Origin: Aequoribacter fuscus
GTDB lineage: Bacteria > Pseudomonadota > Gammaproteobacteria > Pseudomonadales > Halieaceae
Direction: 5' to 3'
Assembly: GCF_009910365.1 (NCBI RefSeq)
Contig: NZ_CP036423.1
Coordinates: 930,001 to 994,000 of the forward strand
DNA length: 64,000 bases
Under the pieces are notes generated by a model that was not told the DNA's origin, ran no database searches, and worked only from the letters and a program-made list of their open reading frames with translations. The translations under genes and the position numbers were made by a program. Of the stretch, positions 11,636 to 34,640 are shown piece by piece (the stretch's first letter is position 1; the number at the start of each line of letters is the position of its first letter).

Positions 11636-12270
11636 ATCAGGTGTCCAATTCTCCGACCCGTTTAAATACCGTCTCAGCAAAGAATTTAGCGGATAGCCAG
11701 GCACACCTGCTAACTGTGGTCTCTAGTCAACGTTTCTTAAGGAACGAAGGCCTGAATAACGAAGTTCCGTTTCATATTTGCCCGTTTGAGCCTGAAATCA
11801 GCGAGGACATGAACCACGCAATCAAACAACTCAGAAATGAGCTCGACGATAAAGGCATCGGTGTTCTTGAGGTCAACCTGTATGATCTTGTGGTTGAAAT
11901 TCTCAAAGAGGAGGGCGACTGGGAATGGCTGATAGAGAATGAGCTCACGCTATCTAGAGAGGAATTAAAAGAGGAGCTGCAGGGCATTCTGGATACCGAG
12001 AACGTGTTGATTCCCGCCATTGTGAAGAAGATGAAGGGTTCCGCTTTCGATGTCATGTTCATTACTGGGGTCGGTGAAGTATTCCCCTATATCCGATCTC
12101 ACAACATCCTGAACAATTTACAGCGCGTTGCTAAAGAGCAGCCAACACTAATGTTCTTTCCGGGTAAGTATCAACATTCGCTGGCGAGCGGCGCGTCTTT
12201 GCGCCTGTTCAATAAGCTACAGGATGATAAATATTATCGTGCGTTCAATATTCTCGATCGAGCGAACTGA
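11632..12270 (+). CDS. brxB: BREX protein BrxB (DUF1788)
   Basis: A 212-residue DUF1788 protein, BrxB. Typical features: EVPFHICPFEPEI early, GIGVLEVNLYDLVVEIL in the middle and MFFPGKY near the end. BrxB is needed for type I BREX and is thought to bridge BrxC and the PglX/PglZ complex. Coupled to brxA by overlap, 14 bases before brxC with AAGGAG ahead of that start. Confidence 0.93.
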   Translation: MNQVSNSPTRLNTVSAKNLADSQAHLLTVVSSQRFLRNEGLNNEVPFHICPFEPEISEDMNHAIKQLRNELDDKGIGVLEVNLYDLVVEILKEEGDWEWLIENELTLSREELKEELQGILDTENVLIPAIVKKMKGSAFDVMFITGVGEVFPYIRSHNILNNLQRVAKEQPTLMFFPGKYQHSLASGASLRLFNKLQDDKYYRAFNILDRAN

Positions 12271-12284
12271 TTTAAGGAGTTTTT

Positions 12285-18800: not shown

Positions 18801-19300
18801 TACGGGTGACGTTTGGCGATCAGCACTATGCCGAGAACGTAGCCTTTATCGAAGATGCGTTGGGTAAGAGTATCCAAAAATACTTCGTTAAAGACTTTTA
18901 TAACGACCATGTTCAACGTTACAAGAAGCGCCCAATCTACTGGTTGTTCTCAAGTCCGAAAGGCACGTTCAATGCGCTGATCTACATGCACCGCTACACG
19001 TCGTCAACGGCAAGTGTCGTGCTGAACGAGTATCTGCGTGAGTTCCGCACCAAGCTCGAAGCGCGTCGCGATAGCAACGAGCAAATCTCAATTAGCGCCA
19101 GCAGTTCTCAGAAAGAGAAGACCGCTGCACTGAAGATGATCGATAAGCTCAACAAAGCGATTGAAGAGGTGAACGACTACGAGCGTGAGGTACTTTATCC
19201 GTTGGCAGGTCAGAACATCGCCATCGATCTCGATGATGGTGTGAAACACAACTATCCCTTGTTCGGCAAAGCGCTGAAGAAGATCACAGGCTTGAGCTAA
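15821..19300 (+). CDS. pglX: BREX-1 adenine-specific DNA methyltransferase PglX
   Basis: The specificity and modification subunit of BREX, 1159 residues, the usual length. SAM-binding motif I, IADPAAGSGHML, lies near residue 290; the catalytic N6-adenine motif NPPY is at residues 467-470 (VVANPPYKKKG). The C-terminal half contains the target-recognition region followed by a helical tail. Methylates one strand of an asymmetric non-palindromic site in known systems, marking self DNA. Begins with GTG overlapping the brxC stop. By eye the central part (about 17,230-18,240) uses codons differently from both flanks. Confidence 0.95.
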   Translation: MDTSKLKKFAQAARQELLEQVGSKLAFVLKPESPARREYPAVVNELEKAMSAHGKAALIDQVAYTWFNRFCALRFMDVNGYNRVGVVSPAEGQVQPEILAEAKSGVLDDGQINAQTIEKIRGLLNGSIPSPDAQSEAYRLLIVGSCNALYDRMPYLFERIQDFTELLMPDDLLSDNSILTKMREVMTPESCTDVEIIGWLYQFYISEKKDEVFAGLKKNQKITAENIPAATQLFTPHWIVRYLVENSLGRLWMLNRPNSKLTEQMEYYIAPEEPESDFLKIGSPEEIKIADPAAGSGHMLTYAFDLLYAIYEEEGYDPNDIPGLILSNNLYGIEIDERAGALASFALEMKAAAKLGRRRFFRMDAKPNVCVLEDFTFTDSEMDDVMSIVGKDLYSADLRETLTQFEQAKNFGSLIVPKLKDPAETLRLIETKDLAGDMWLTEVHERLVRVLRMAEYLSPKYHVVVANPPYKKKGDLNGQLQSFLVEKFPDCFSDLYAAFIDRLNKLCRRHCLFAMIAMDSWLFGDDFTEMRIRLLSGAPFKQLAHLGPRAFDQIKGEVVQVASFVSQRHGDPSQVAQFFDLTDGQTSEEKASMLRKRHGKHLARGTDFSCLPRNVVAYFVSDHTRNAYAKGTPLKEIAEAFTGLQTGDNDRFIRCWPEVNSNSIANNNSYDVIGSDDHPWVRYIKGSDYRKWYGNGFLVLNWARNGQAVINHPSARPQNREHYFKPGLAYNTIAKKFSARRVYGGEVFDQKNSMFIAANDVSLDESLALLHSNSIVPLLRVVAAKDFGPGSMKLLPMPSDGIPLPAREITLQSVRLARADWDAYETSWDFSTLPLISHDHRGETLAERYASLRTHWQSMKDEMQRLEEENNRIFIEVYGLQDELSPEVPIEEITLTCNPAYRYGIKGTKEERETRLKADTMAEFLSYAVGCMFGRYSLDEPGLILANQGETLADYLARIPEPAFMPDDDNVIPLIDFEGDWFEDDISERFKQFLRVTFGDQHYAENVAFIEDALGKSIQKYFVKDFYNDHVQRYKKRPIYWLFSSPKGTFNALIYMHRYTSSTASVVLNEYLREFRTKLEARRDSNEQISISASSSQKEKTAALKMIDKLNKAIEEVNDYEREVLYPLAGQNIAIDLDDGVKHNYPLFGKALKKITGLS

Positions 19301-19310
19301 GGCAGGGACG

Positions 19311-21860
19311 ATGACACAAAACCGTATTCAACAAAATCTCGCTCGACTGTTTGAGCGCCAGCGCATTGTCTTCTGGTATGACGACAAGAAAGAGTTTCGC
19401 GAGGCGTTTGAAAGTCTTGAGATGGAGGGCGTGGAGAAGGCTGAAATTCAGTCGAATGAATTTACTCTCAAGCATCGTATCTTGCGGGAAGAGCCAAAAC
19501 AGAACTTCCTGCTGTACTGCGAAGATAAAGAGCCCGAGTATCTCAACAACTGGCTGCTCGACGTTCAGCTGCACAGTGCAGTATTCCGGACTGACCAGTC
19601 CGCGATCTGGCTGAGCGAAATGAACCTCCCGCCAGACTTTGCCGATGTCGTTACGGAACATGAAGCCTTTTTTGATGCGGGTCGCGCGCCTAAGCAAGCC
19701 GAGACCCGCAAGCAAAAGCTTCTCGATTTACTGCAACCCGACGACCTCAAACAGCATGTGCGGCTCAAGATGCTGGCTGTCTGCGCAGATCTTCATCAGC
19801 TGGCCGATGTACGCTTAGATGTCATTTGCGAAAATCTGTTTGATGAGTTGGTTGAGGATACCCAACCACGATTTGCGCTGATCGAACGATGCAATCTGAC
19901 GGGCGTGCTATGGGAGCAGATCGAGCGTCACTACGGATACGTCTCAGAGACGCCATCGGTCAAAGACTTCTCAATCGAGCTGTTTAAGTCGTGCTACGCA
20001 CTCTCAATCACCAATCCAAAAGCTAGCGATAAGGCCGCGCTAAATAACGATGCACTCGTACTCTTCAAACGCTGGAAGGACAGTCGCAAGCACGAGGACG
20101 TCTTTGAATCCCTCTCAGGCAGCTATGCAGAGCTACTAGACATAGAGAGCGATCTAAACAATCGGGATCTGCGCGATGTCATCGAGATGGATTACTACCG
20201 CTTGATTGACCAAAAAATCATCGTAGATCTGGTCAAAGCCGTGAGCCAACGCACGCTGTCGGAAGGCGAGGTCACCAAATACTGCCGTGAGCGTCGTCAA
20301 AGTCACTGGTACGGTGCGTTTAAACACCTCTACACTGCGATCGAAGTCGCCAGTCAGTTCCTATCTGCGCTAGATACTGTGCAGCTCAACATGAGTAGCA
20401 CGTCCGATGCCGTGCATGGCTACGTGCGCCACTGGTACAAGATTGATCAGATGTACCGCAAGTTCATCCACGCCCTGAAATCCTCTGGGCAGATGACCCT
20501 GCTGAATAACCTGGTCGATACCGTGGAGAACCTTTATACCAATCGTTTCTTAAGTCCGCTGGCTACTCAATGGCAGGGTCAGGTGGATGCGATGGATAAA
20601 TGGTCCGTACCGGATGTGATCCCGCAACGCCAGTTCTACAGCAATTGGGTAAAACGCTATTCCAACCGCGGCAGCAAGATCTGCGTCATTATCTCGGATG
20701 CGTTTCGCTATGAGGCCGCCGAAGAGATGATCGGCCGCATTAACGGGGAAAAGCGCTATCAGGCCTCACTCAGCCACATGCTGTCGTCCCTGCCAAGCTA
20801 TACGCAGTTGGGCATGGCGTCGTTGCTCCCATCCAACGGCGGTGAATTCACCATTTCGGATAGCGATGGTTCGGTGTCGATTGGGGGTGTATCGACTCAG
20901 GGAACCGCGAATCGAGACAAGCTGATCAAAGCTGCCCTGGGTGATACCGCCTGTGCGCAGCAAGCCAAATCCATCTTGGATATGACGCAAAGCGAGGGGC
21001 GTGAGCTCTTTAAAAACCACGATGTCATCTACATCTATCACAACCGCATCGACCATGCTGGCGACAAGATGCAGTCCGAGGGTGAAGCCTTCGATGCTAC
21101 GGAGCGTACGTTCGACGACTTGATGATCCTGATTAAGAAGCTCGCTGCTTACAACGCATCTAATATCTTGATCACCGCGGATCACGGGTTTATCTATCAG
21201 AACAAGCCGCTCGATGAGAGCGATTTCTTGTCTGCCGATGCCAGTGGTGAGGTGCATTACCGCGACCGCCGCTTCCTTCTTGGCAAAGGATTATCCGCCC
21301 CGGAATCCATCAAGGTGTTCAGCCCAGAACAACTAGGACTGTCAGGTGATGTGCACGCGGCCATTCCAAAAGGAATCCAGCGCCTTCGCTTGAGTGGCTC
21401 GGGCAGTCGCTTTGTTCACGGCGGAGCGACCTTGCAAGAAGTCATTGTTCCCGTCATCTCAGTGAATAAGAGCCGACAGGATGATGTCGCAGTCGTTGAA
21501 GTCGATTTGCTTCGCGGTGGTACCAACATCATCTCGGCAGGGCAGCTCTCAGTCACGTTGTATCAGACCGAAGCGGTGACCGATAAGCTCAAACCGCGCC
21601 AGCTACGCTGTGGCATTTACACGTCGTCTGGTCAGCTGATCTCTGACGCACACAACGTCACAATGGATCTGACATCGGATAACGCCCGCGAGCGCGAGAT
21701 GAAGTTGCGTTTCGTTCTGACTCAAGATGCCGACGCTGCGAACAATCAGGAAGTGAGCCTGAAGCTAGAAGAGCAAGTTGCAGGCACAAACCAGTACACC
21801 GAATACAAACAGTTGAAATACACCATTCGCCGCTCATTCACGAGCGACTTCGATTTTTAA
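19311..21860 (+). CDS. pglZ: BREX-1 alkaline-phosphatase-like PglZ (type A)
   Basis: An 849-residue PglZ protein of the alkaline-phosphatase fold. Metal-site motifs: ICVIISDAFRYEAAEEM near residue 463, IYIYHNRIDHAGD near 578 and LITADHGFIYQN near 622. In BREX it is required for both methylation and phage exclusion and binds PglX. Start ATG 19311 lies 10 bases after pglX. Confidence 0.94.
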   Translation: MTQNRIQQNLARLFERQRIVFWYDDKKEFREAFESLEMEGVEKAEIQSNEFTLKHRILREEPKQNFLLYCEDKEPEYLNNWLLDVQLHSAVFRTDQSAIWLSEMNLPPDFADVVTEHEAFFDAGRAPKQAETRKQKLLDLLQPDDLKQHVRLKMLAVCADLHQLADVRLDVICENLFDELVEDTQPRFALIERCNLTGVLWEQIERHYGYVSETPSVKDFSIELFKSCYALSITNPKASDKAALNNDALVLFKRWKDSRKHEDVFESLSGSYAELLDIESDLNNRDLRDVIEMDYYRLIDQKIIVDLVKAVSQRTLSEGEVTKYCRERRQSHWYGAFKHLYTAIEVASQFLSALDTVQLNMSSTSDAVHGYVRHWYKIDQMYRKFIHALKSSGQMTLLNNLVDTVENLYTNRFLSPLATQWQGQVDAMDKWSVPDVIPQRQFYSNWVKRYSNRGSKICVIISDAFRYEAAEEMIGRINGEKRYQASLSHMLSSLPSYTQLGMASLLPSNGGEFTISDSDGSVSIGGVSTQGTANRDKLIKAALGDTACAQQAKSILDMTQSEGRELFKNHDVIYIYHNRIDHAGDKMQSEGEAFDATERTFDDLMILIKKLAAYNASNILITADHGFIYQNKPLDESDFLSADASGEVHYRDRRFLLGKGLSAPESIKVFSPEQLGLSGDVHAAIPKGIQRLRLSGSGSRFVHGGATLQEVIVPVISVNKSRQDDVAVVEVDLLRGGTNIISAGQLSVTLYQTEAVTDKLKPRQLRCGIYTSSGQLISDAHNVTMDLTSDNAREREMKLRFVLTQDADAANNQEVSLKLEEQVAGTNQYTEYKQLKYTIRRSFTSDFDF

Positions 21861-21893
21861 TGAAGGGCGATGAGAAATAAACAGGACAGAACC

Positions 21894-23957
21894 ATGACGG
21901 ATCTAAACGCAAAAATTAACGACATCTTCCCCGGCCTTGTGGTTCGCAAGGATCTGGTGAAGACCGTAAAAGGGAACGCCATTGTTCCGTCCTACGTCCT
22001 TGAGTATCTGCTGGGGCAGTATTGCGCGACAAACGACGAAGATAGCATTCAGAGTGGCATCCAGACGGTTAAAGAGATCCTCGCCAAGCACTACGTTCAT
22101 CGTAACGAGGCGGGGCTGGTACGGTCCACTATCCGTGAGAAGGGGCGCTACAAGGTCATTGATAAGGTGACTGTGGCACTGAATGATAAAAAGGACTGCT
22201 ACGAGACCGAGTTTTCTAACCTCGGGATCAAAAAGGTCTTAATTGATTCCGGCACGGTTAAAAAACACCCCAAACTCTTAGTCGGTGGTGTCTGGGTTAT
22301 TGCGGATATCGAGTACGAGCATACGGAAGACAAGGATGCGGTGCCTTGGATCTTGGGCACTCTAAAACCGATTCAGATGTCGCACTTCGACTACGAAGGC
22401 TACCTTGAAGCCCGCAAGCAGTTCACGCTGGATGAGTGGATTGATGTGTTGGTACAGAGTATCGGCTTTAACCCGGAGTACTTCGGTGAGCGCAGTAAAC
22501 TCACCCAACTGGTGCGACTCATTCCGTTTTGTGAGCGCAACTACAACCTGATTGAACTTGGCCCAAAAGGAACGGGTAAATCTCATATCTATTCTGAGTT
22601 CTCACCCCACGGCATTCTGATTTCAGGTGGCGAGGTTACGGTACCCAAGCTGTTCGTAAACAACTCAAGCGGCAAGATCGGCTTGGTCGGCTATTGGGAT
22701 ACCGTCGCATTCGATGAGTTCGCAGGTAAAGAGAAGAAGGTCGACAAAGCGCTGGTCGACATCATGAAGAACTACATGGCGAACAAGTCGTTCTCTCGTG
22801 GTGTTGAAACGCTTGGTGCCGATGCGTCGATGGCGTTTGTCGGTAACACTGAACATAGCCTAGCTTACATGCTCAAGCACTCTGACCTATTCGACGCGCT
22901 ACCCGCAAAATTCTACGACTCCGCGTTCTTAGACCGTCTGCATTTCTATATTCCCGGCTGGGAAGTGGACATCATCCGTGGCGAGATGTTCTCAAGCGGC
23001 TACGGCTTTGTTGTTGACTATCTTGCTGAGGTGCTGCGCCACCTCCGCAACCAAGACTACTCAGACCAATACAAAGGGATATTTGAGCTCGACCCCTCTC
23101 TCTCGACCCGTGATAGAGACGGTATCAATAAGACTTTCTCAGGCCTGATGAAGATACTCTTCCCGCAGGGCGGGGCTACCCATGAAGAGATAGAGAAGAT
23201 TCTCAAACTCGCGATGGAAGGCCGCAAACGCGTTAAAGATCAGTTGATGCGCATCGACACTACCTACGCTTCAGTTAAATTCAATTACAGCGATGAGGCA
23301 GGTAAGCAGGCTTCGGTTTCTACCTTAGAAGAACTGCAATACCCTAAATACTTCCACCATGAGGTCGAGGTGGATACCGGTGAGTTACCTGAACCAATAC
23401 CCGCGAATAACGCATCACCGTCAACGCCGAGCGCGCCTGTCGCGCCTCAAAGCGCAAAGCCTGAGTTAAAAGAGCAACACATCGTGGTGATGGAGAATCA
23501 GCGCGGCGTCAGTTACGAGCAGCTTTTTGGGCCGTATCTTAAAGGTGCTACCCATATCACCATAACAGATCCATATATTCGATTGTTCTACCAGGCGCGC
23601 AATCTGATGGAGCTTTTAGAATCCGTCGTGAAAGCCAAGTCTGAAGAGGATGAAGTGGTAGTAAGCCTGATCACTGTCGAGGACGAGTTCAAAGGCGAAC
23701 AACAACGTGAATGGTTGAGCCAGATTCAGAGTTCGATGCTCACGGTCGGCATCAAATTCGCCTTCTCATTTGATAACTCAGGGAGGCAACACGCTCGCCA
23801 TATCGTGACGGATACCGGCTGGAAAATCTCTTTGGACCGCGGACTCGATATCTTCCAACAGTACGATATGAATGATGCCTTCCAGCTGACAAACCGACTG
23901 CAATCCCAGCGGCCATGTAAGGCATTTGAAGTGACCTATATTCGAGTGGGAGAGTAA
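21894..23957 (+). CDS. brxL: BREX AAA+ protein BrxL with C-terminal MIT_C-like domain
   Basis: The AAA+ effector of type I BREX. ATG 21894 (687 residues) is preferred to the in-frame ATG at 21870 because AGGACA lies just before it. The N-terminal part (DIFPGLVVRKDLVK, VPSYVLEYLLGQYC) and Walker A GPKGTGKS at residues 223-230 are typical of the BrxL ATPase core. A proline-rich linker near residues 495-520 leads to a ~150-residue tail: SYEQLFGPYLKGATHITI, DPYIRLFYQARN, then GWKISLDRGLDIF. That tail closely follows the MIT_C (phospholipase-D-like) domain of MITD1 instead of a Lon-type protease domain. Core call is firm; the tail is by motif recognition. Confidence 0.92.
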   Translation: MTDLNAKINDIFPGLVVRKDLVKTVKGNAIVPSYVLEYLLGQYCATNDEDSIQSGIQTVKEILAKHYVHRNEAGLVRSTIREKGRYKVIDKVTVALNDKKDCYETEFSNLGIKKVLIDSGTVKKHPKLLVGGVWVIADIEYEHTEDKDAVPWILGTLKPIQMSHFDYEGYLEARKQFTLDEWIDVLVQSIGFNPEYFGERSKLTQLVRLIPFCERNYNLIELGPKGTGKSHIYSEFSPHGILISGGEVTVPKLFVNNSSGKIGLVGYWDTVAFDEFAGKEKKVDKALVDIMKNYMANKSFSRGVETLGADASMAFVGNTEHSLAYMLKHSDLFDALPAKFYDSAFLDRLHFYIPGWEVDIIRGEMFSSGYGFVVDYLAEVLRHLRNQDYSDQYKGIFELDPSLSTRDRDGINKTFSGLMKILFPQGGATHEEIEKILKLAMEGRKRVKDQLMRIDTTYASVKFNYSDEAGKQASVSTLEELQYPKYFHHEVEVDTGELPEPIPANNASPSTPSAPVAPQSAKPELKEQHIVVMENQRGVSYEQLFGPYLKGATHITITDPYIRLFYQARNLMELLESVVKAKSEEDEVVVSLITVEDEFKGEQQREWLSQIQSSMLTVGIKFAFSFDNSGRQHARHIVTDTGWKISLDRGLDIFQQYDMNDAFQLTNRLQSQRPCKAFEVTYIRVGE

Positions 23958-23960
23958 AAC

Positions 23961-24818
23961 ATGGCAGGGCGTTACCGCACTATCCAGATATATCTGCCCA
24001 ATGGGGATCCAACTGGGATCCGCATAGCTGAGCTCACAACTTCTATTATCAGGGTCATCGAAATCCCTAGAAGCCAAATCACTCAATTTCTCAAGAGTGA
24101 AGAGGCTAACCAGGTAGGGTTTTACTTTTTGTTCGGTGGAGATAGTAAAGACGAAGTTTATATCGGCCAGTCCGGTAACTTGGGATCGCGTTTGTCACAA
24201 CACAGCAAGGATGACAAACGAGACTGGGAGCGAGCACTGGCTGTAGTGTCGTTGACCAATAATCTCACGCAAACGCATGTGCTGTATTTGGAGTCGTTGA
24301 GCATAGAGCGCGCCAAGGCCTGCGATCGATACAGAGTGATCAACGGAAACGGCGGTCAGCGGCCTCACACACCTATTCCTCTGCGTGACGATTGCGATGA
24401 GATCCATGAAATAGCCTCGCTTTTAATGGCTACGCTGGGCTACCCAATTTTTGAGAAACTGGTCGATGAGTCCAACGAAAATGAGCGCGAGATTTTTTAC
24501 TGTACACGCACAGGCGCCAACGCTCAGGCGGTCTACACAAACGAAGGCCTGGTTGTGCTGAAAGGTTCGACCGGTCTTCTTAATCCCAATGGCAAATCCA
24601 GAGCGGATTTGGTAAATGCTAGAGACCGACTGATCGAGAGCGGCGTGCTTGCTGTCGAAGGTGAGTTCACCCGATTTACAAAAGACTGGTTATTTTCGAC
24701 ACCCAGTGGTGCCTCTAACGCTGTCGTCGTCATGCCTTCCAATGGATGGCGTGAATGGAAAACCGCCAGTGGAATTACGCTCGACGAGCTTCACCGCTCT
24801 GGACCCGCAAATGAATAG
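23961..24818 (+). CDS. GIY-YIG nuclease with DUF4357 tail, BREX-linked
   Basis: A 285-residue protein. The GIY-YIG signature is VGFYFLFGG then VYIGQSGNLGSRLSQH around residues 53-80, with the catalytic Arg in GSRL. The C-terminal third (LVNARDRLIESGVL to GWREWKTASG) fits DUF4357, a frequent partner of GIY-YIG. It begins 3 bases after brxL, so it is probably co-transcribed with BREX. GIY-YIG/DUF4357 proteins occur in many defence islands; here it may add direct DNA cleavage. Not part of the six-gene core. Confidence 0.85.
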   Translation: MAGRYRTIQIYLPNGDPTGIRIAELTTSIIRVIEIPRSQITQFLKSEEANQVGFYFLFGGDSKDEVYIGQSGNLGSRLSQHSKDDKRDWERALAVVSLTNNLTQTHVLYLESLSIERAKACDRYRVINGNGGQRPHTPIPLRDDCDEIHEIASLLMATLGYPIFEKLVDESNENEREIFYCTRTGANAQAVYTNEGLVVLKGSTGLLNPNGKSRADLVNARDRLIESGVLAVEGEFTRFTKDWLFSTPSGASNAVVVMPSNGWREWKTASGITLDELHRSGPANE

Positions 24819-27455: not shown

Positions 27456-27788
27456 CTACTGAACCATAACGCTAAAACTCAATGCGGCAACACAGTAGGC
27501 TGCCAGCCCTCGCAGTATCATCGATACAAAAATCCCCGCGTAGTCTCTGGGTTCTAGGTCAAGTAAATGAGATTCGACTTTACTCATCCAGCCCACATAC
27601 ATACGTTGGCACATAAGCGCATAATACAGCGCAATACCTGCCATATAAGCCAGTTCCGGGTGGTAGTAAATCGCCGCCATTTCCAAAGCGATAAACGCAA
27701 ATGCGCCAATTAAACACTGTCTTAAATAGCCAGCGGCTTTGCGCGCAATGTGATTATCTATGTTAATTCCTAATAGTTTTTCGATCAT
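27456..27788 (-). CDS. small membrane protein, last gene of the DUF763/radical SAM operon
   Basis: A 110-residue protein with about three hydrophobic segments (LIGAFAFIALEMAAIYY, ELAYMAGIALYYALM, IFVSMILRGLAAYCVAAL). The start is placed at ATG 27788 (MIEKLLGIN) because AGGAG lies 6 bases upstream and the longer frame upstream only shadows the neighbouring gene. It follows the 122-residue membrane gene by 8 bases. No family recognised. Confidence 0.75.
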   Translation of the reverse strand: MIEKLLGINIDNHIARKAAGYLRQCLIGAFAFIALEMAAIYYHPELAYMAGIALYYALMCQRMYVGWMSKVESHLLDLEPRDYAGIFVSMILRGLAAYCVAALSFSVMVQ

Positions 27789-27796
27789 GCTGACTC

Positions 27797-28165
27797 CTAG
27801 GCGAGCAGTGCGCCAATAAACCAGATAAGAGCGATAGCCCCGAAAAACACCACGGCAATGGCGATACCGATCATGTCGGTGGGTTCTGGGTAGGGGTAAC
27901 CGCTTTGTGCTTTGTTTAAAATGAAGCCACGGCCTATTTCGCACATGGCGATCATGAAAGCTAGCCAAGGCAGAACCCACCAGATCTGACTCAGCAGGCA
28001 GGCTATCATTAGCAGTGCGCAGTAAACTTCAAGGCGTACGCTAAAACGCATGACGCTCATAAGTTCTTGCCCTTGTTTAGAGTACTCATCAAACAGTCCC
28101 GCACCGTCGTGCAGGCGTTTATCCGATATAAAAACGCGATATAGCCAATCCCATAGTTTGCTCAT
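27797..28165 (-). CDS. small membrane protein of the DUF763/radical SAM operon
   Basis: A 122-residue protein with a cytoplasmic-looking N-terminus (MSKLWDWLYRVFISDKRLHDG) and about three membrane helices (VYCALLMIACLLS, WWVLPWLAFMIAMC, MIGIAIAVVFFGAIALIWFIG). It overlaps the radical SAM gene by ATGA at 28162-28165, so expression is coupled. Not recognised; could form a membrane complex with the next small protein. Confidence 0.77.
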   Translation of the reverse strand: MSKLWDWLYRVFISDKRLHDGAGLFDEYSKQGQELMSVMRFSVRLEVYCALLMIACLLSQIWWVLPWLAFMIAMCEIGRGFILNKAQSGYPYPEPTDMIGIAIAVVFFGAIALIWFIGALLA

Positions 28166-28926
28166 GCTACTCTCCGTGCGGGTTTGTTGGGGTGCAGGCC
28201 GTAGCGTGCTAGACGCTTGCGTACCTTTGGGAAGAGCTTGATTCGCTCTAGCTCTAACGATTTGAGTATGCCTGGATGCACAGTAAGCAGGCGCTGTTTT
28301 ACTCGGTGAATGGCGCTCTCGTCCGAAAACGATACCGACACACAGGCGTTGCAGCTGACTTGTGCGCGTATCAGGTTGTCTAAGGCCTGAAATGGCAGGG
28401 CGTAAGCCGCGCGCTGTGCGCCTGTAAGTCTATGAAACTCGTCTTCGTCGCAGCCCTTAATCGATACTCGAACGTGCAGCTGCCGATACTTTGCCAGTTG
28501 CAGGGCGAAATCCGGGTCGGCACCCAGTGTCATGCCGTTCGTTTCCAATATGTAAACGAACTCAGACTGCTCCACCAAATCGAGCAGTTCGAGCAGGTGT
28601 TGCCTGCCCAGAGTGCCCTCTGACGCCGAGGCCGATATTGTGCTGTGGCCATATTTGCGAGCGTTAGAGGCCAAGCCATCAAACACTTGCTGGGGTGTGT
28701 AAAATTGACCGGTTGTGGCCGGTTTCCATACGGGTTTGTCGCTAAAGCAAAATTTGCAGCGTAGGTTGCAGCCGACCTCAGTAGCACTAGTGGTGCCCCC
28801 GTAAAAACGAAGGGTTCTGCCCAACTGCACGTATTTGCGCTGGTTGCCCCTAACCACAATGCCCTCCATAGCATGGGTGAGGGCGAGCGGGTCGTAACCC
28901 GCATCGCTCGTAATGATATCGCTCAT
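28162..28926 (-). CDS. radical SAM enzyme
   Basis: A 254-residue radical SAM protein. The iron-sulfur cluster motif is VGCNLRCKFCFS with Cys53, Cys57 and Cys60 (CxxxCxxC). Further barrel features: RFYGGTTSATE before it, SASEGTLGRQHLLELL and VYILETNGMTLG after it, VRVSIKGCDEDEF near residue 175. It lacks the extra cysteine-rich SPASM domain, so it is a small single-barrel enzyme, perhaps an activase or a modifier of a small target. Overlaps DUF763 by ATGA on one side and a membrane gene on the other. Substrate unknown; it is not viperin-like in its neighbours. Confidence 0.88.
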   Translation of the reverse strand: MSDIITSDAGYDPLALTHAMEGIVVRGNQRKYVQLGRTLRFYGGTTSATEVGCNLRCKFCFSDKPVWKPATTGQFYTPQQVFDGLASNARKYGHSTISASASEGTLGRQHLLELLDLVEQSEFVYILETNGMTLGADPDFALQLAKYRQLHVRVSIKGCDEDEFHRLTGAQRAAYALPFQALDNLIRAQVSCNACVSVSFSDESAIHRVKQRLLTVHPGILKSLELERIKLFPKVRKRLARYGLHPNKPARRVA

Positions 28927-30158
28927 GAGTCCTTTTTCCCGTATAGCAGTGGGTTTTGCGTGTCCATGAGTTTACGGGTCAGACCTTTAACTACGCTGCC
29001 CATGAAAGTTTTGCCGCCGTTCGTCTCAGCGTGTTCCCATTCGTGCTCAATCAGTTCGTTGATAAAATCCAAGGGAATGCCTTTGGTTTCGCCAGCCACG
29101 GCTGCCTGGTGCAGGCGCTTGATCGCTTTGTTTTTGTCTTTTTCGCCCAGCTTCGAGCGCGCAACACTGTCTTTGAGCATGCTTACCGTTTCGTCCATGG
29201 CATCGGTATCGATGGGATGGGGGCGTCCGTCTTTACCGCCCACGGCGAACGCGAAGCGGGCAGGGTCTTCAAAGCGGGTTGCATCGCCGTGCACCAACTC
29301 ACTGGCCATTGCTAGGGCCTTGAGAGTTCGGGGGCCCACGCCGTGCAGATCTACCAGTTCTTCGAAGGTCTCGATATCACGGTTGTAGGCCAAATCAAGA
29401 ACCGAGGCGAGGCGTGCGGGATTGATATCCTCTTTGCGGACGTCGTGGCGATTGGGTAGTTCCGAGGCATGTATGGCCTCTACTAAATCTTTCGGGCGTT
29501 CTCTCGTGAGCTCAACTATGTGTTGACGCAGCGGTTCTGCACTGGCGTCCACTAGGTTCAGTACCTGCTGCTTTTCCAGACCTGCAATGCCTGTGTGCGG
29601 CGCATCGCCGAAGGAACGCACGCTCGGCGAATGCCAGTGATACCGACGGGCACGGCGCGTATCTCTATTCATTCCCTGTGATATGGCGGTCCACTCACCC
29701 TGATTCGACAATAAAAAGTACTGTTGATACAGGCCGTAACCATCCTGTATGGCGTTGTTATCGATCCTACTGGTCAGGCGCTGTGACTTAATCAGAGCAT
29801 TGCCATCAAGGCCGTGTTTGTCTGACACCCGCTCGATTTGCTTGGGGCTATACCAAGCCGCTTTGCCTTTGCCGCCCAGAATGTAGAGACCTAAATCGTG
29901 CGCGCGTGGGTTAAGTTTGCGTTTTAGGGAGCCTAAAACCACAGCGGTAACGCCACTCGAGTTCCAGTGCATACCCATTATCGCACCTAGTGCCTGAAAC
30001 CAGTTAGGGTCAGACATACGGGTCAATACCTCTGAGGGGCCGTAGTTTTCGATAAGGGCTTCAATGATCGCCTCGCCCATGTTGCCCATGCGCTCGGTTA
30101 AAAAGCCTGGCACTTTGCCAAAATGTAGGGGCATGCCTACGCTACCTGCTGAAATCAT
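28923..30158 (-). CDS. DUF763 family protein with helix-hairpin-helix segment
   Basis: A 411-residue DUF763 protein. Family features: GSVGMPLHFGKVPGFLTERM at the start and, near residues 270-330, ELVDLHGVGPRTLKALAMAS (a helix-hairpin-helix of the DNA-binding kind) followed by FAFAVGGKDGRPHPID. DUF763 occurs in archaea and scattered bacteria and has no assigned function that I know. AGGAGA lies 6 bases before ATG 30158; the start overlaps the upstream stop (ATGA) and its own stop overlaps the radical SAM start. The HhH suggests DNA contact; any enzymatic role is guesswork. Confidence 0.87.
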   Translation of the reverse strand: MISAGSVGMPLHFGKVPGFLTERMGNMGEAIIEALIENYGPSEVLTRMSDPNWFQALGAIMGMHWNSSGVTAVVLGSLKRKLNPRAHDLGLYILGGKGKAAWYSPKQIERVSDKHGLDGNALIKSQRLTSRIDNNAIQDGYGLYQQYFLLSNQGEWTAISQGMNRDTRRARRYHWHSPSVRSFGDAPHTGIAGLEKQQVLNLVDASAEPLRQHIVELTRERPKDLVEAIHASELPNRHDVRKEDINPARLASVLDLAYNRDIETFEELVDLHGVGPRTLKALAMASELVHGDATRFEDPARFAFAVGGKDGRPHPIDTDAMDETVSMLKDSVARSKLGEKDKNKAIKRLHQAAVAGETKGIPLDFINELIEHEWEHAETNGGKTFMGSVVKGLTRKLMDTQNPLLYGKKDS

Positions 30159-31225
30159 AATGATTCTCCTGTGTGTTTAAGGTGGAGTGCATCGGCACTC
30201 AGTTTGATTGATGTGGCCAGTAAGTCGGTTCCTAGGCGTGCTAGGCGGTTAAGAAAGGGTATGCACTGCAGTGCACGTAGTAGTTTGATAATTGCCGTCG
30301 CTGGGCGATTGATGCGTTCGAAGGTATCGTGATCTCGCATCGCTGCTGCGGTTTTAAGCGCGAGGCCCGTTGCCGCGACGCCAGTTCCCATGACTATCGG
30401 CCCGGAATCAGGAGTCCATTTGCCGTTATACCCGCGGAGGTATTCTCGGAAACCCCATATTCCCAACCTGCGTTGAAACATGTGCTCTTTAAAACACTCC
30501 CACTGCGCTTCTGCCTCGCGTGGCGCGAAATGACTCATGTAGTAAATTAGGTAGGCGAGCGAGCACCCTCGCGGCTGGTCTGAATAAGCTTTTACACCCA
30601 ATGCTTCTGTTTGGAATAGACCTGTTTTAGGCTCGGTTCGATATGTGCGCATATAGCTCAGCCAGGGCTCTATTAGTTTGGTGGCCAAGCTTGTCTTGTT
30701 GTTTTGATCAAACAGCCATACTGAGTAGATAATTGCTGCTTGATCGGCTGACCAGCGCATACGTACGTGGGGTAGTAGAGGCGCGTGCAGATTCGACTCG
30801 GCGAGCGTGAGTGCGACTAAATGCTCAGTGATGCGTTTGTTCAGTTTGTAAAAGCGGTTGTCTGATAGGGCTTGGTAGCATCCTAAAATAATGTTCAAGT
30901 GCTCGAGATAGTATCCATAGCGACCTAAATCCTGTTGTTGGTCTAGCGGTTTGCTGAAAGGTCGAACACGGCTGTGCATGGCACAATCGGCGACGCGTGT
31001 GATGTAAATCGCTGCGTCTGTTTGTTCAAGGCAGCCGCATTTACACAGGGTTAGTAGTGCTTCTGCCATATTAGATAGCGCTGCGATATCCTGGCCCCAG
31101 GCCTTTGGTACGAACTGCATGATGAATAGATCGTCCTTTGTGAAGCCGTGGAAATCGCGCGTTAGAAAATCTGAGATCAAGCTTAATTCTGTTGGTGTGT
31201 TGTTTGATCTTTTTATGGGGTACAT
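30155..31225 (-). CDS. large alpha-helical protein, first gene of the DUF763/radical SAM operon
   Basis: A 356-residue protein that I cannot assign with confidence. It is rich in paired helices, and the segment WTPDSGPIVMGTGVAATGLALKT near residue 290 recalls alpha/alpha-barrel enzymes with a DSGP motif (glycosidase- or linalool-dehydratase-like). A hydrophobic stretch sits near the C-terminus. The start is set at ATG 31225 (MYPIKRSNN), 5 bases after AGGAGG, not at the upstream in-frame ATG which would lie inside the operator. It is coupled to DUF763 by ATGA overlap. Confidence 0.78.
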   Translation of the reverse strand: MYPIKRSNNTPTELSLISDFLTRDFHGFTKDDLFIMQFVPKAWGQDIAALSNMAEALLTLCKCGCLEQTDAAIYITRVADCAMHSRVRPFSKPLDQQQDLGRYGYYLEHLNIILGCYQALSDNRFYKLNKRITEHLVALTLAESNLHAPLLPHVRMRWSADQAAIIYSVWLFDQNNKTSLATKLIEPWLSYMRTYRTEPKTGLFQTEALGVKAYSDQPRGCSLAYLIYYMSHFAPREAEAQWECFKEHMFQRRLGIWGFREYLRGYNGKWTPDSGPIVMGTGVAATGLALKTAAAMRDHDTFERINRPATAIIKLLRALQCIPFLNRLARLGTDLLATSIKLSADALHLKHTGESL

Positions 31226-31234
31226 AACGCCTCC

Positions 31235-31295
31235 TGTAAACAAGCTGTTTACGACTGTAAATTAATTGTTGACAAATGTAAACAGTAAATTTACA
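31235..31295. promoter_or_regulatory. three phased TGTAAA-N7-TTTACA operators in a divergent promoter
   Basis: Three 19-bp palindrome-like sites start at 31235, 31256 and 31277, each exactly 21 bp apart: TGTAAACAAGCTGTTTACG, TGTAAATTAATTGTTGACA and TGTAAACAGTAAATTTACA. The outer two are good dyads; the middle one is degenerate in its right half. They cover the space between the minus-strand operon (ATG 31225) and the small plus-strand gene (ATG 31332). A 21-bp step is two helical turns, so bound dimers would stack on one face. The spacer is 7, not the 6 of a TyrR box. Regulator unknown. Confidence 0.85.
31254..31282 (-). promoter_or_regulatory. probable promoter of the DUF763/radical SAM operon
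   Basis: Read on the minus strand, TTTACA (31282-31277), a 17-base spacer and TACAGT (31259-31254) form a moderate sigma-70 promoter, placing the start about 20 bases before the AGGAGG of the first gene. It lies wholly inside the triple operator, implying repression. Confidence 0.5.
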
Positions 31296-31331: not shown

Positions 31332-31484
31332 ATGGGTGCTTTAGCTTTAGTTATGGGTGTAGTGGCGATGTTTTTAGTAGGATTTTCATTGTATGTAGCA
31401 GGCCGCGTATATAGAGAAGCTGGGAGAGCTGCGGTCAGGCCCTTATTCTTGGTGCGACGGCAGCTGATGTGGCGCTTGGCATAA
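31332..31484 (+). CDS. 50-residue membrane peptide, divergent from the DUF763 operon
   Basis: ATG 31332 is preceded by AGGAG (31321-31325) and a clear promoter. The peptide begins MGALALVMGVVAMFLVGFSL, one strong membrane helix, and ends in a basic amphipathic tail (REAGRAAVRPLFLVRRQLMWR). Shape resembles small toxins, pore peptides or complex subunits. It shares the triple-operator region with the DUF763/radical SAM operon, so it is likely part of the same regulon. Confidence 0.72.
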   Translation: MGALALVMGVVAMFLVGFSLYVAGRVYREAGRAAVRPLFLVRRQLMWRLA

Positions 31485-31575: not shown

Positions 31576-32361
31576 ATGGACGAAATTTTTGAAGAGATCG
31601 CAAAACTGATACGCCGCGAAGATGAGGGATACCCAGAGTCTCTCGCCGATAATTCAGACCTCGACATCAAAATAACCGTGAAGTCCGGTCAAGTGATTAT
31701 CCGGCGCGCGGGTCGTGTGAAGATTTTCAAATCAAGCAACAACAAATTCCTTGATGTCCTCCTTTCGTTTTGGCCGCTTTGGACTCCTGCTGATCTATGC
31801 TGGCTACTCGAGTTTAAAAAGCTCGATTTAGAAATTGGCTACTCTGATCAATTGAAGGCTCTTCTTGATTCCAATTCGACTGACCTAGACGATCTTGCAC
31901 TCGCGAGCGAGAGTGAACTCGAATACGGATCTTTTCAAAATATAATCGAAGACTTTTGTCTCAATTCAAGTCAGGTTTATGATCCAAGTGATCCCGCGAG
32001 TTATTTCGATGGGCGTGACTGCTGTGATGATGAGGCGGACGATGAATCGAATGAGGAGCTATTTGCCCGACTGGTAGCCGAGTACCCTCCAGAGATTGTA
32101 GTTAAGCACTGTTATTACGAGTCTGCCTCAGATGAACATATCGAGCCTCAACGAGTTTTTGACTTTCAACCCCGCGGCTCACTCTCGTACAGGAATGTGT
32201 TCTATTCGTCACCCCTCGTGGTTTCAAACTGCGGGCATGAGCCCAATGTTATGGTGACTGTTTCCAAAGCGGATGAGATCCTCTTCTCTATACCTCATGA
32301 AGAGTTTAAGTTGAAGTTGGCAGCTGCAGTCAGAAGCTTGCCCGAGGAGTACGACCTATGA
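31576..32361 (+). CDS. hypothetical acidic protein
   Basis: A 261-residue, strongly acidic soluble protein (clusters such as DCCDDEADDESNEE near residue 150) without a recognised domain. Its stop overlaps the start of the following exported protein (ATGA at 32358). The acidity and coupling to small exported proteins would allow an immunity- or chaperone-like role, but nothing proves it. Confidence 0.7.
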   Translation: MDEIFEEIAKLIRREDEGYPESLADNSDLDIKITVKSGQVIIRRAGRVKIFKSSNNKFLDVLLSFWPLWTPADLCWLLEFKKLDLEIGYSDQLKALLDSNSTDLDDLALASESELEYGSFQNIIEDFCLNSSQVYDPSDPASYFDGRDCCDDEADDESNEELFARLVAEYPPEIVVKHCYYESASDEHIEPQRVFDFQPRGSLSYRNVFYSSPLVVSNCGHEPNVMVTVSKADEILFSIPHEEFKLKLAAAVRSLPEEYDL

Positions 32362-32759
32362 GCCTAATACGAGCAATAGTATTGGTATCCCTTCTAAGCG
32401 CTAGTGGTAATGCATTAAGTAAATGTTTGATGGTAGGTCAACTCAAGGGCTGGACAGCGAAAGAGAGAGATAGCCATATGTTCGAGGAGGATGGATTTTC
32501 CTCAAGCATTTTTTATTTGAACTTTGCTGAGGAAGGCAAAGATAGTTGGATGTCTGATTCCCCCTCAGTGATAAAAATACCATGCGCCAATCTGGGGGTG
32601 CTTACCTGCGTTGATCAAAGATATGGAGACACGATTTTGAATTGGGCTATCGACTCTCACGGATCAAAGGTCACGCATACTCGCATCTACGACGGAACGG
32701 GGGTCTTTGACGGCGTCTCAGCTATGGTCGGTGAAGTGCTAGGAGAATGTAATTTGTGA
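32358..32759 (+). CDS. exported hypothetical protein
   Basis: A 133-residue protein with a Sec signal peptide (MSLIRAIVLVSLLSASGNALS, cleavage likely before or after LSK at about residue 21). The mature part has several cysteines (KCLMVGQLKGW, IPCANLG, LTCVDQRYG, GECNL) that could form two disulfides in the periplasm. Not recognised. Overlaps both neighbours (ATGA upstream, GTGA downstream). Confidence 0.72.
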   Translation: MSLIRAIVLVSLLSASGNALSKCLMVGQLKGWTAKERDSHMFEEDGFSSSIFYLNFAEEGKDSWMSDSPSVIKIPCANLGVLTCVDQRYGDTILNWAIDSHGSKVTHTRIYDGTGVFDGVSAMVGEVLGECNL

Positions 32760-33196
32760 AGAGCGTATTGTTTACGTTGTCCCTTGCCGGATGCTGCCTT
32801 TTCTCTGATGTGGTCGCCGCAAATTTTCCATGCGACAAGACATTGTACTGTTATGCAGAACAGATCCATTTGGTACAGCCCAATGGTGAAATACTAAACT
32901 TCAAACCTGAAAATCTGACGCTCAGAGTCGAAGCAGATAAGTTAAGTATCCCGCCAAGACAGTCAATTCTCGGTGACGGGACTACGCAACTGCAGATTAA
33001 GAAAGAATTTTTCAGATGCGGAGGTGGTCAGGCCCCATTCAACAAATACAAACTCGCGGCGGTTAAGGAATTTGGGTTAGGGCCGGAAGCTGTCGTAGAA
33101 ATTTCTGATGGAAAATTCCGAAGCGTTAATATGCGCCCTTATTTCTACGGGGAAGGGATATTGGTAGTCCACGGAACCTGTGATTATTTTGACTAA
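32756..33196 (+). CDS. exported hypothetical protein
   Basis: A 146-residue protein starting at GTG 32756 inside the upstream stop. The N-terminus (KSVLFTLSLAGCCLFSDVVAA) is a signal peptide with cleavage after VAA; the LAGC segment might instead act as a lipobox. The mature protein has cysteines in PCDKTLYC, FRCGG and GTCDYF, so disulfide-bonded. No family recognised. Last gene of the three-gene unit. Confidence 0.72.
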   Translation: MKSVLFTLSLAGCCLFSDVVAANFPCDKTLYCYAEQIHLVQPNGEILNFKPENLTLRVEADKLSIPPRQSILGDGTTQLQIKKEFFRCGGGQAPFNKYKLAAVKEFGLGPEAVVEISDGKFRSVNMRPYFYGEGILVVHGTCDYFD

Positions 33197-33273: not shown

Positions 33274-33903
33274 TCATCGACCTTGGAAATAGTTCTGGAT
33301 AGTTTTTGCGACTCGCTGAAATGTCGTCAAACGCCTGGGCGAAATGGACAGGTGATCTAGCCGGCTCTCAATAGCGCTAATGGATACTGACTTGAGATCG
33401 AGCGCCTTTTGTATGTCTACTGCCAATGCTCGTCTCGATTTGGCGGACGTCGCATAACGCCACTTTGAAGCTTTAGTAGCGGCTCTGACTGGGCCAGGTG
33501 GCATTAGCAGAGCCTCTGCGAAACGATCCGCTTGAACTTCCTCTACTGGCCGAGCCTTGCTCCGACACAAAATCCCCAACTCATCTTGGTGCTTGATGTA
33601 CAGCTCTCGATGAAGGCAATGGTGGCCTATCTCGTGAGCGATCGTGAAGTTATAACGGCCCTCGTGATTCTCAATTCTGGGATTGATCAGAATAACGTTC
33701 GCCCGGAAATCAATGCCTCCGATGATGTCTGCTTCTTGATCCGTGAAGTCGAGCTCATAACCCAGATGAAACTCGGCGATTCGTTCTACTGGAACGGGTA
33801 GGGTAGACCTATCTATGCCCAGAGCGTCGAGCGCTTCGTTGCGGAATTGTTCCGCTGTCGACTCTATCTGTTCACTGGAGAGGGCAGGCCAGTTAATCAT
33901 CAC
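33274..33903 (-). CDS. ImmA/IrrE-family metallopeptidase
   Basis: A 209-residue zinc peptidase of the ImmA/IrrE (M78) type. The zinc motif IAHEIGHHCLH (HExxH) lies near residue 90, with EVQADRFAEALLMP as the downstream ligand segment near residue 130. It overlaps the XRE regulator gene by 11 bases. In known pairs the peptidase cleaves its partner repressor on a signal, derepressing an integrative element or phage; the position beside the att end fits such a switch. Confidence 0.9.
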   Translation of the reverse strand: MMINWPALSSEQIESTAEQFRNEALDALGIDRSTLPVPVERIAEFHLGYELDFTDQEADIIGGIDFRANVILINPRIENHEGRYNFTIAHEIGHHCLHRELYIKHQDELGILCRSKARPVEEVQADRFAEALLMPPGPVRAATKASKWRYATSAKSRRALAVDIQKALDLKSVSISAIESRLDHLSISPRRLTTFQRVAKTIQNYFQGR

Positions 33904-34240
33904 CGCGTGTCATTTCTTCGACTTGCGTTTTCAGCAGAGCCCATTGTTCTGGCGTTAGATCTTTAGCCGATCTCAGAAAACTTGGGATAGCCGTGTGCTT
34001 GTCTTTGATTAGCTGCGACACCTCTGGATCAATTTGATCAGCCAGGGCCGAGAGCTCATCGATATCTGCTTTCAAAGCAGCTGCGAGTTTCTTGAGCATC
34101 TCGCCACTCGGCATTGCCTTCCCTTTTTCCATGTTCGAGATGTGCATCCCAGTGCATTCGCACATGCGGCCCAGTTCACGAACGCCGATGTGTTTATCTT
34201 CTCGAAGTGCTTTTAATTTCTGGGCAAAAGGGTTTGGCAT
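33893..34240 (-). CDS. XRE-family HTH repressor
   Basis: A 115-residue regulator with an N-terminal XRE helix-turn-helix (LKALREDKHIGVRELGRMCECT, NMEKGKAMPS, residues ~8-50) and a helical tail ending in the ImmA-partner region. ATG 34240 (MPNPFAQK) is chosen because the HTH begins there at the normal distance; the in-frame ATG at 34300 would add an AT-rich, unlikely leader. Likely the substrate of the coupled ImmA-type peptidase and the lysogeny-type control of the island. Confidence 0.87.
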   Translation of the reverse strand: MPNPFAQKLKALREDKHIGVRELGRMCECTGMHISNMEKGKAMPSGEMLKKLAAALKADIDELSALADQIDPEVSQLIKDKHTAIPSFLRSAKDLTPEQWALLKTQVEEMTRGDD

Positions 34241-34590
34241 GAAGATGTCTTCTGTAAATTTATAGTATTCAATTGTAGGTGGTGATGCGAATTTGATCAA
34301 TAGAAATGTCCGCTAACTCCCTCATAGCTAGATGCTTGCTTAGCAATTTAATGCTATATCAGTCGTTGTCCGTTAGATTCCATCGTTACAACGCGAATAG
34401 CTCGATCATTTAGCCAAATCAACTTATCAGGTTAGTATCTGATATTGTTATTCGCGTGACTCGCATGCTACCCGATTCCTGGCGTGAATCACTAAGTTTT
34501 GAAGCTCGAGTTAACCGTTTATCTTATTGTGGTAGTAAATGTGGTAAAAATAAAAAAGCACCCCGTAAGGTGCTGTTTTATATAGGTATT
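34241..34590. other. 350-base gap between XRE gene and ssrA, island right end
   Basis: No gene is supported. It contains the promoter region of the XRE gene, an AT-rich stretch, and the hairpin terminator at 34550-34573 just downstream of ssrA. The junction of island and chromosome should lie at its right edge. Confidence 0.6.
34550..34573 (-). terminator. intrinsic terminator of ssrA
   Basis: On the minus strand: GCACC, loop, GGTGC stem (34573-34558) followed by TTTTTTA (34557-34551). It lies 18 bases after the mature tmRNA 3' end. As the island begins here it may be supplied by the island rather than by the original chromosome. Confidence 0.8.
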
Positions 34591-34640
34591 TGGTGGAGGC
34601 GGCGGGAGTTGAACCCGCGTCCGCCAGCACTCTGCCATCG
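34591..34640 (-). other. probable attachment site (ssrA 3' end)
   Basis: The T-arm and acceptor part of tmRNA (minus strand ...GGGTTCAACTCCCGCCGCC then TCCACCA, ending at 34591) is the usual core for ssrA-specific integrases. The gene is intact here, and the duplicated core copy should lie left of the integrase, outside the window. Exact core limits cannot be set from one copy. Confidence 0.6.

What the first reader, a model, noticed from the sequence alone, without database searches (positions are those of the whole stretch)
27456..31225. Uncharacterised five-gene operon: helical enzyme-like protein, DUF763, radical SAM, two small membrane proteins
The sequence shows five minus-strand genes joined by ATGA overlaps (30155/30158, 28923/28926, 28162/28165) and an 8-base gap, with one strong regulated promoter. 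DUF763 has an HhH segment and no known function to me; the radical SAM protein is a compact single-domain enzyme with Cys53/57/60; two membrane proteins close the operon. Placed in a defence-rich island, this could be a new anti-phage or island-maintenance system in which the radical SAM enzyme modifies DUF763, a nucleotide or a small molecule. That role is inference.
Basis: partly seen in the sequence, partly recalled or inferred. Interest (0 to 1): 0.8.

Follow-up and report, generated by a model that had tools for sequence, protein, structure and literature searches.

The report
Damage-switched DUF763–radical SAM island module
A mobile DNA island in a marine bacterium carries a pair of uncharacterised proteins, one of them a radical enzyme, that stay together in distantly related bacteria under a switch like one known to turn on anti-phage systems when DNA is damaged, so it is a good candidate for an undescribed defence or damage-response system.

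Summary
The five minus-strand genes are real, but the conserved unit is different: a CapH/CapP-like repressor–protease pair, a tandem operator, DUF763 and a compact radical SAM enzyme (rSAM). DUF763 is directly upstream of this rSAM in 17 of 18 public loci. CapH-like and CapP-like genes lie upstream in 14 of 14 loci long enough to show them. Operator pairs occur in 12 of 15 relatives and as a triplet in the window. The 356-residue protein has the linalool dehydratase-isomerase fold without its two catalytic-site cysteines; it and the membrane proteins are accessory. All of it lies on a 35-kb BREX island at the tmRNA gene, absent there in two congeners. Large neighbours match defence families in 11 of 32 cases, controls in 0 of 17. 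Best reading: single-stranded DNA activates CapP, CapH is cut, a DUF763–rSAM effector is induced. The switch rests on homology, position and operator; the defence role and chemistry are inferred.

The parts
33893..34240 (-). CapH-like HTH repressor (115 aa from the ATG)
   Evidence: Pfam HTH_31 E 1e-9 and HTH_3 2.5e-9; PADLOC HTH_VI 1.6e-9 and capH 4.6e-9; tail with FLRSAK shared with 12 of 14 relatives
33274..33903 (-). CapP-like M78/IrrE-type zinc protease (209 aa)
   Evidence: PF06114 E 2.3e-13; PADLOC capP 8.9e-20; profile of 15 relatives finds CapP 7t5t first in PDB, E 2.2e-14; H90, E91, H94, E122 in 15 of 15
31235..31295 (.). Operator: three 19-bp palindromes TGTAAAC-N5-GTTTACA at 31235, 31256 and 31277
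   Evidence: 1, 2 and 1 mismatches; the genome's only two sites with at most 1 mismatch are here; similar pairs or triplets in 12 of 15 relatives
34253..34271 (.). Weak single operator-like site just before the CapH-like gene
   Evidence: 3 mismatches; on its own not beyond the genome background
30155..31225 (-). A356: LDI-fold protein, accessory gene
   Evidence: AF2 pLDDT 82.9; LDI Z 30.7, 303 residues, 3.2 A, next other family 21.9; profile to LDI E 0.004; relatives in 6 of 18 loci
28923..30158 (-). DUF763 protein with HhH-like segment, core gene
   Evidence: PF05559 E 5.3e-116; directly upstream of rSAM in 17 of 18 loci
28162..28926 (-). Compact radical SAM enzyme, core gene
   Evidence: PF04055 E 1.6e-12; C53, C57, C60 and C195 in 16 of 16, C192 in 15 of 16
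27797..28165 (-). M122: small membrane protein with a GYPxxExxDxxG-like motif, accessory
   Evidence: two hydrophobic segments; relatives in 8 of 18 loci by clustering; motif read by eye
27456..27788 (-). M110: small membrane protein, accessory
   Evidence: two hydrophobic segments; relative only in L014
31332..31484 (+). Divergent 50-aa hydrophobic mini-ORF with an AGGAG-type stretch before its ATG, across the operator
   Evidence: plus-strand promoter-like site inside the operator; that it is a gene is inferred
34589..34604 (.). 16-bp attachment-like repeat at the tmRNA 3' end, one edge of the island; other copy at genome 929289-929304, left of the window

Best explanation
A mobile, stress-switched effector module. 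A CapH-like repressor sits on tandem operators before the operon. When single-stranded DNA builds up through DNA damage or phage replication, the CapP-like protease cuts CapH and the operon is induced. The induced core is DUF763, probably a DNA-binding protein, with the compact radical SAM enzyme. I think the enzyme most likely acts on DUF763 itself (its module-specific C-terminal tail as substrate or dock), or else on nucleic acid held by DUF763, with an anti-phage or damage-response effect. The LDI-fold and membrane proteins are optional parts. Shown here: gene pairing, correlated sequence distances, operator conservation, homology of the switch, an integrated island. Inferred: ssDNA sensing, CapH cleavage, the defence role and the enzyme's target.
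For: DUF763 next to rSAM in 17 of 18 loci. CapH-like and CapP-like genes upstream in 14 of 14 loci with enough sequence. Operators in 12 of 15 relatives plus the window, near-perfect sites unique in the genome. Distances of DUF763/rSAM, DUF763/CapP and rSAM/CapP correlate (r 0.88, 0.86, 0.75; 0 of 9999 permutations each). capP, capH and solved CapP matches. CapH+CapP: ssDNA-activated protease and repressor of adjacent immune operons (PMC13373217, passages). Large neighbours match PADLOC in 11 of 32, controls 0 of 17, Fisher one-sided p 0.0044. BREX on the same island. A QNxxLYG tail in 15 of 16 module DUF763 proteins, absent from the 15 solo ones aligned.
Against: No phenotype, expression or binding data. 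Neighbour test is small: controls come from two genomes and from ordinary chromosome, so it may show only that the module sits on islands; several hits are generic methylases or a helicase; 6 of 13 loci with large ORFs had no match. DUF763 elsewhere is solo: 0 of 28 loci with rSAM, HTH or protease relatives, two of these on contigs under 6 kb. Against PADLOC the five operon proteins gave nothing but a weak partial pVip match of rSAM (9.1e-7). In the window three opposite-strand genes separate the regulators from the operon. L025 and L028 lack the operator and L026 has one weak site. L027, a truncated rSAM, has no DUF763. Correlated distances show co-inheritance, not function.
Confidence: 0.5

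Rival explanations
1. DNA-damage tolerance or repair module: the same switch induces DUF763 and rSAM to repair or process damaged DNA, with no specific role against phages.
For: PprI, a structural relative of CapP, is ssDNA-activated and its repressor DdrO controls damage-response genes (PMC10904395, passages). HhH-like segment in DUF763. One solo DUF763 (Bosea) lies beside a DNA glycosylase, two Ku genes and LigD. A radical SAM enzyme that repairs DNA photoproducts is known (recalled).
Against: Ku, LigD and glycosylase relatives in only 1 of 28 solo DUF763 loci. Patchy, island-borne distribution (4 of 140 family genomes) and defence neighbours fit defence better.
Confidence: 0.25
2. Small-molecule or lipid pathway: rSAM and the LDI-fold protein modify an isoprenoid-like or other small substrate at the membrane, with the small membrane proteins, and DUF763 is a regulator or carrier.
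For: A356 has the fold of a terpene-alcohol enzyme and sits with membrane proteins; rSAM best NCBIfam matches are peptide or cofactor maturases and activases, though far below their cut-offs.
Against: A356 is in only 6 of 18 loci and LDI's Cys171 and Cys180 fall on Pro152 and Asp161. DUF763, not A356, is the near-constant partner of rSAM (17 of 18).
Confidence: 0.13
3. Mobile-element housekeeping: the HTH–M78 pair is an ImmR/ImmA-type element regulator and the operon serves excision, transfer or upkeep of the island.
For: The module is on an integrated island with an integrase; HTH/ImmA-type regulation of an integrative element is on record (PMC10233336, abstract start).
Against: Pfam finds an integrase family in only 2 of 124 neighbour ORFs of the relatives; the relatives sit in many contexts. 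The operator's near-perfect sites are at this operon, none near the integrase.
Confidence: 0.12

Closest known systems
CapH+CapP-controlled immune operons (CBASS, Bub)
   Same: HTH repressor and M78/IrrE-type protease upstream of an accessory operon; match to capH and capP models and to solved CapP; defence-island setting
   Different: The controlled genes are DUF763 and a radical SAM enzyme, not a described immune effector; no CD-NTase among the 18 window proteins scanned; CapP-like ORFs are 209-264 aa against 291 for the solved CapP; in the window the pair is 2 kb from the operon
PprI/IrrE–DdrO damage switch of Deinococcus
   Same: M78 protease and HTH repressor; IrrE is the second PDB match (1.4e-4)
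   Different: Shorter proteases, another operator (TGTAAAC-N5-GTTTACA), island-borne single operon instead of a genome-wide regulon
Solo DUF763 (PF05559) of rhizobia, archaea and others
   Same: Family invariants such as H12, W65, S67-S68-G69, D133, Q138-D139, W156, Q161-G162-M163 and A170-R171-R172-Y173-H174-W175
   Different: Solo gene without rSAM, HTH or protease in 28 of 28 loci; D64 and H66 where the module has H/Q and N (6 module and 15 solo proteins); no QNxxLYG tail
Linalool dehydratase-isomerase (A356)
   Same: Fold over 303 residues, Z 30.7; His129 falls on invariant H109
   Different: Cys171 and Cys180 fall on invariant Pro152 and Asp161; 14% identity
Prokaryotic viperins (pVip)
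   Same: Radical SAM core, partial weak match
   Different: 24.2 bits against a cut-off of 180; MoaA and PFL-activase models score alike or better

Membership tests
CapH+CapP regulators | M78/IrrE-type zinc protease with HExxH and downstream Glu, closest to CapP | tested here: met
   PADLOC capP 8.9e-20; PDB profile best match CapP 7t5t 2.2e-14; H90, E91, H94, E122 in 15 of 15
CapH+CapP regulators | Adjacent HTH repressor resembling CapH | tested here: met
   capH 4.6e-9, though HTH_VI scores slightly better at 1.6e-9; adjacent HTH gene in 14 of 14 relatives
CapH+CapP regulators | Encoded upstream of the operon they control | tested here: met
   14 of 14 relatives; in the window upstream but with three opposite-strand genes between, linked by the operator
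CapH+CapP regulators | ssDNA-activated cleavage of the repressor | not testable with these tools
   needs biochemistry
CBASS | CD-NTase next to the regulators | tested here: not met
   no CD-NTase match in the 18 window proteins scanned with PADLOC; other window ORFs were not scanned
DUF763 (PF05559) | Pfam gathering score 35.5 | tested here: met
   387.7 bits, profile positions 3-319 of 319
Radical SAM superfamily | CxxxCxxC cluster motif and Pfam cut-off 29.5 | tested here: met
   48.4 bits; C53, C57, C60 in 16 of 16
Prokaryotic viperin | NCBIfam NF038283 cut-off 180 bits | tested here: not met
   24.2 bits
Linalool dehydratase-isomerase (A356) | LDI (alpha/alpha)6 fold | tested here: met
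   Z 30.7 over 303 residues, next family 21.9
Linalool dehydratase-isomerase (A356) | Cys171 and Cys180 (site residues mutated in the PDB entries; catalytic role recalled) | tested here: not met
   Pro152 and Asp161 in a profile alignment, invariant in 6 of 6
Anti-phage defence system | Protects against phage | not testable with these tools
   genomic context only: 11 of 32 against 0 of 17

The most novel reading that the evidence does not exclude
A new immune effector class: a damage-switched pair in which a radical SAM enzyme activates or marks DUF763 through its module-specific C-terminal tail, or the DNA it holds, so that radical chemistry on a DNA-bound protein or on nucleic acid stops phage replication.
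Probability: 0.2. Interest if true: 0.87.

Novelty: new variant of a known kind. Interest (0 to 1): 0.63.

Why it matters
DUF763 spans archaea and bacteria with no assigned function; in the held library one paper names it, in tables. A conserved DUF763–rSAM pair under a CapH/CapP-like switch gives a direct route to that function: induce it with damage or phage and look for the radical SAM substrate. If it is defence, it adds an effector chemistry to the immune operons controlled by ssDNA sensing.

Tried and rejected
DUF763 fold: AF2 with 16 close relatives gave pLDDT 51.4. Best VIA-align Z 4.3, so no fold is claimed. Sequence profiles gave no convincing PDB relative (best E 0.3 and 0.024).

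Ku/LigD link: suggested by Bosea, rejected as general because 1 of 28 solo loci has it.

Viral or plasmid carriage: no match of rSAM or DUF763 in phage records, none confirmed in viral contigs, no rSAM in plasmids. DUF763 in 230 plasmid records is under 60% identical in all; five of these loci were opened and none lists a radical SAM gene, nor do the two archaeal ones.

PADLOC on neighbours: one search gave family counts only, so large ORFs were scanned singly. All 32 of at least 434 aa were tested, in four batches with the longest mostly first, plus one of 383 aa without a match that is left out of the count. Matches: one each in L015, L022, L031; two each in L019 (probably one gene in two frames), L021, L024 (probably one enzyme in two ORFs), L025. 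Counting L019 and L024 once gives 9 of 30. Controls are 17 of 66 candidate ORFs from 15 stretches of two genomes. Smaller neighbour ORFs were not scanned singly.

A clustering of solo DUF763 contexts was too noisy, with spurious ORFs in GC-rich DNA and output cut; one search replaced it. A 28-base search for an attachment repeat found only the tmRNA itself; the repeat is 16 bp. The first operator scan looked before the protease gene in some loci; searches repeated it, and in L022, L023, L029 and L031 the array was found only by looking wider (217-672 bases before the HTH gene, 32-bp spacing).
Full report
What is there. The five minus-strand genes of the finding are present as described. DUF763 is PF05559 at E 5.3e-116. 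The third gene is a radical SAM protein (PF04055, E 1.6e-12); none of the 25 NCBIfam models shown for it reaches its cut-off (35 matched). The two small proteins carry hydrophobic segments. The first gene, here A356, had no family match.

The conserved unit. A scan of genome contigs with the radical SAM protein, which finds close relatives only, gave 18 loci from records labelled gammaproteobacteria, Thioglobus, Rhodospirillales or Rhodospirillaceae, Marinimicrobia, Flavobacteriales and others; most are metagenome bins, so single labels are uncertain. DUF763, whole or cut by a contig end or split in frames, lies directly upstream in 17 of 18. The exception, L027, is a truncated radical SAM gene. 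In 14 of 14 loci whose contig reaches far enough, a small HTH gene and an M78-type protease gene lie upstream of DUF763. The full five-gene order recurs only in L014. A356 relatives are in 6 of 18 loci: before DUF763 (L014, L030), after the radical SAM gene (L025, L026, L028) or divergent and split (L019). M122-like proteins are in 8 of 18. So the core is HTH–protease–DUF763–rSAM and the rest is accessory.

The switch in the window. The same two regulators lie in the window at 33893-34240 and 33274-33903, separated from the operon by three plus-strand genes (31576-33196). They match PADLOC capH (4.6e-9; another HTH model, HTH_VI, 1.6e-9) and capP (8.9e-20). A profile of 15 proteases finds the solved CapP first (2.2e-14) and IrrE second (1.4e-4) among PDB sequences. 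The zinc ligands are invariant in 15 of 15. The repressors share a tail with FLRSAK in 13 of 15, window included. It may be the cut site, by analogy with DdrO; that is inference.

The operator. Three 19-bp palindromes (TGTAAAC-N5-GTTTACA; 1, 2 and 1 mismatches) stand 21 bp apart before A356 and overlap promoter-like sites on both strands. The window has 8 sites at up to 3 mismatches against 2.31 expected, reached by 0 of 100 shuffles. In the whole genome only two sites have at most one mismatch, and both are these; at up to 3 mismatches the genome count (95 per strand) is below the reversed-pattern control (114), so only the near-perfect sites and the array carry weight. A 3-mismatch site stands before the CapH-like gene. 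Tandem sites occur in 12 of 15 relatives, spaced 20-22 bp, or 32 bp in L022, L023, L029 and L031: before the HTH gene, before DUF763 or A356, or before a small extra gene upstream of the HTH gene. In these 12 contigs 22 of 23 sites with at most 2 mismatches belong to the arrays; L017 has the weakest pair (3 and 2 mismatches). L025 and L028 lack them and L026 has one weak site. This ties the distant regulator pair to the operon.

Mobility. The window's first 34.6 kb belong to an integrated island. In congener G003 the tmRNA 3' end runs straight into 7.5 kb that in this genome lie at position 929304 and below; in G002 the same junction is seen over the 67 bases left on its contig. The island is bounded by a 16-bp repeat at genome 929289-929304 and 964589-964604, 35.3 kb in all. 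It carries an integrase, BrxA, BrxB, BrxC, PglX, PglZ and BrxL, and a PDC-S14 candidate. The radical SAM gene is in 4 of 140 family genomes, and a profile found only the window's own in 274 class genomes. DUF763 itself was in 2 of 58 relatives, 8 of 274 class genomes (6 over the cut-off) and 21 of 398 phylum genomes.

Defence neighbourhood. All 32 large neighbour ORFs (at least 434 aa) in the relatives were scanned against PADLOC at E 1e-15; 11 matched, in 7 of 13 loci that have such ORFs: DruE and DruF (L021), a type IIG restriction enzyme in two ORFs (L024), type I methylases (L022, L031), SspC in two frames (L019), a cytosine methylase and NERD+UvrD (L025), a helicase (L015). Controls from two of the genomes gave 0 of 17; Fisher one-sided p 0.0044. 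Neighbours are not independent, and the controls are ordinary chromosome, so this may show islands rather than a specific tie.

A356. Its AlphaFold2 model (pLDDT 82.9) matches linalool dehydratase-isomerase well above other (alpha/alpha)6 enzymes (Z 30.7 against 21.9), and the profile finds LDI at E 0.004. In that alignment LDI His129 falls on invariant H109, but Cys171 and Cys180 fall on invariant Pro152 and Asp161. The scaffold is shared; it should not be called an LDI. LDI numbering comes from PDB titles and my count along the printed alignment; the catalytic roles are recalled.

DUF763. Family invariants over 21 proteins include H12, W65, S67-S68-G69, D133, Q138-D139, W156, Q161-G162-M163 and A170 to W175. 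The module's subfamily has H or Q at 64 and N at 66 where the solo proteins have D and H (6 against 15), and a QNxxLYG tail in 15 of 16 that the 15 solo proteins aligned lack. Twenty-eight solo loci have no rSAM, HTH or protease relative. So this DUF763 seems to have changed with its partner. Its fold is not resolved here.

Co-inheritance. Pairwise distances of DUF763 and rSAM correlate at r 0.88 (14 loci), DUF763 and CapP at 0.86 (14), rSAM and CapP at 0.75 (13), with 0 of 9999 permutations as high; DUF763 and A356 at 0.74 with only 6 loci, 180 of 9999 as high.

Mechanism and status. PMC13373217 (passages) states that the CapP protease is activated by ssDNA and cleaves CapH, and names CapH+CapP and CapW/BrxR together as regulators of BREX, Pycsar, CBASS and DISARM operons; PMC10904395 (passages) gives ssDNA activation of PprI. 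The primary CapH/CapP paper was not held. I therefore propose ssDNA-triggered, CapP-mediated derepression of a DUF763–rSAM effector pair. The switch is supported by homology, position and operator; the outcome (defence or repair) and the radical chemistry are inferred. Damage repair, a small-molecule pathway and mobile-element housekeeping remain rivals. Searches for DUF763, PF05559 and COG1415 in the held library found one paper, which lists the domain in tables; searches joining radical SAM with defence terms gave listings only, and no title or abstract start shown there names this pair. Papers outside that library were not searched.

Noticed in passing
genome 929289-964604 (window 1-34604 and 712 bases to its left): A 35.3-kb island is integrated at the tmRNA 3' end with a 16-bp repeat; congeners G003 and G002 show the empty site.
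   Followed up: yes
window 11054-24818: BREX gene set (BrxA, BrxB, BrxC, PglX, PglZ, BrxL) followed by a PDC-S14 candidate defence protein.
   Followed up: partly
window 31332-31484; L016, L019, L020 across the operator: Hydrophobic mini-ORFs of 43-66 aa run divergently from the operator; L014 seems to begin a similar one (by eye) and L015 has a 31-aa one. L017 and L021 show none, and L030 has a longer ORF there.
   Followed up: partly
L018:1550-3070: A second radical SAM protein with a weak B12-binding match starts at the last base of the module's radical SAM gene.
   Followed up: no
L022, L023, L029, L031 upstream of the HTH gene: Operator pairs with 32-bp spacing stand before an extra small gene, a rearranged version of the switch.
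   Followed up: partly
L012: In Bosea a solo DUF763 gene is beside a DNA glycosylase, two Ku genes and LigD; not seen in the 27 other solo loci.
   Followed up: yes
window 31576-33196: Three plus-strand genes of unknown family (261, 133, 146 aa) lie between the regulators and the operon; the second resembles, by eye, a 188-aa protein after the module in L020.
   Followed up: no
L019:6232-7424, 8775-10005, 14083-17575: A356, DUF763 and SspC are each split across frames, which may be sequencing error in that bin rather than decay.
   Followed up: no
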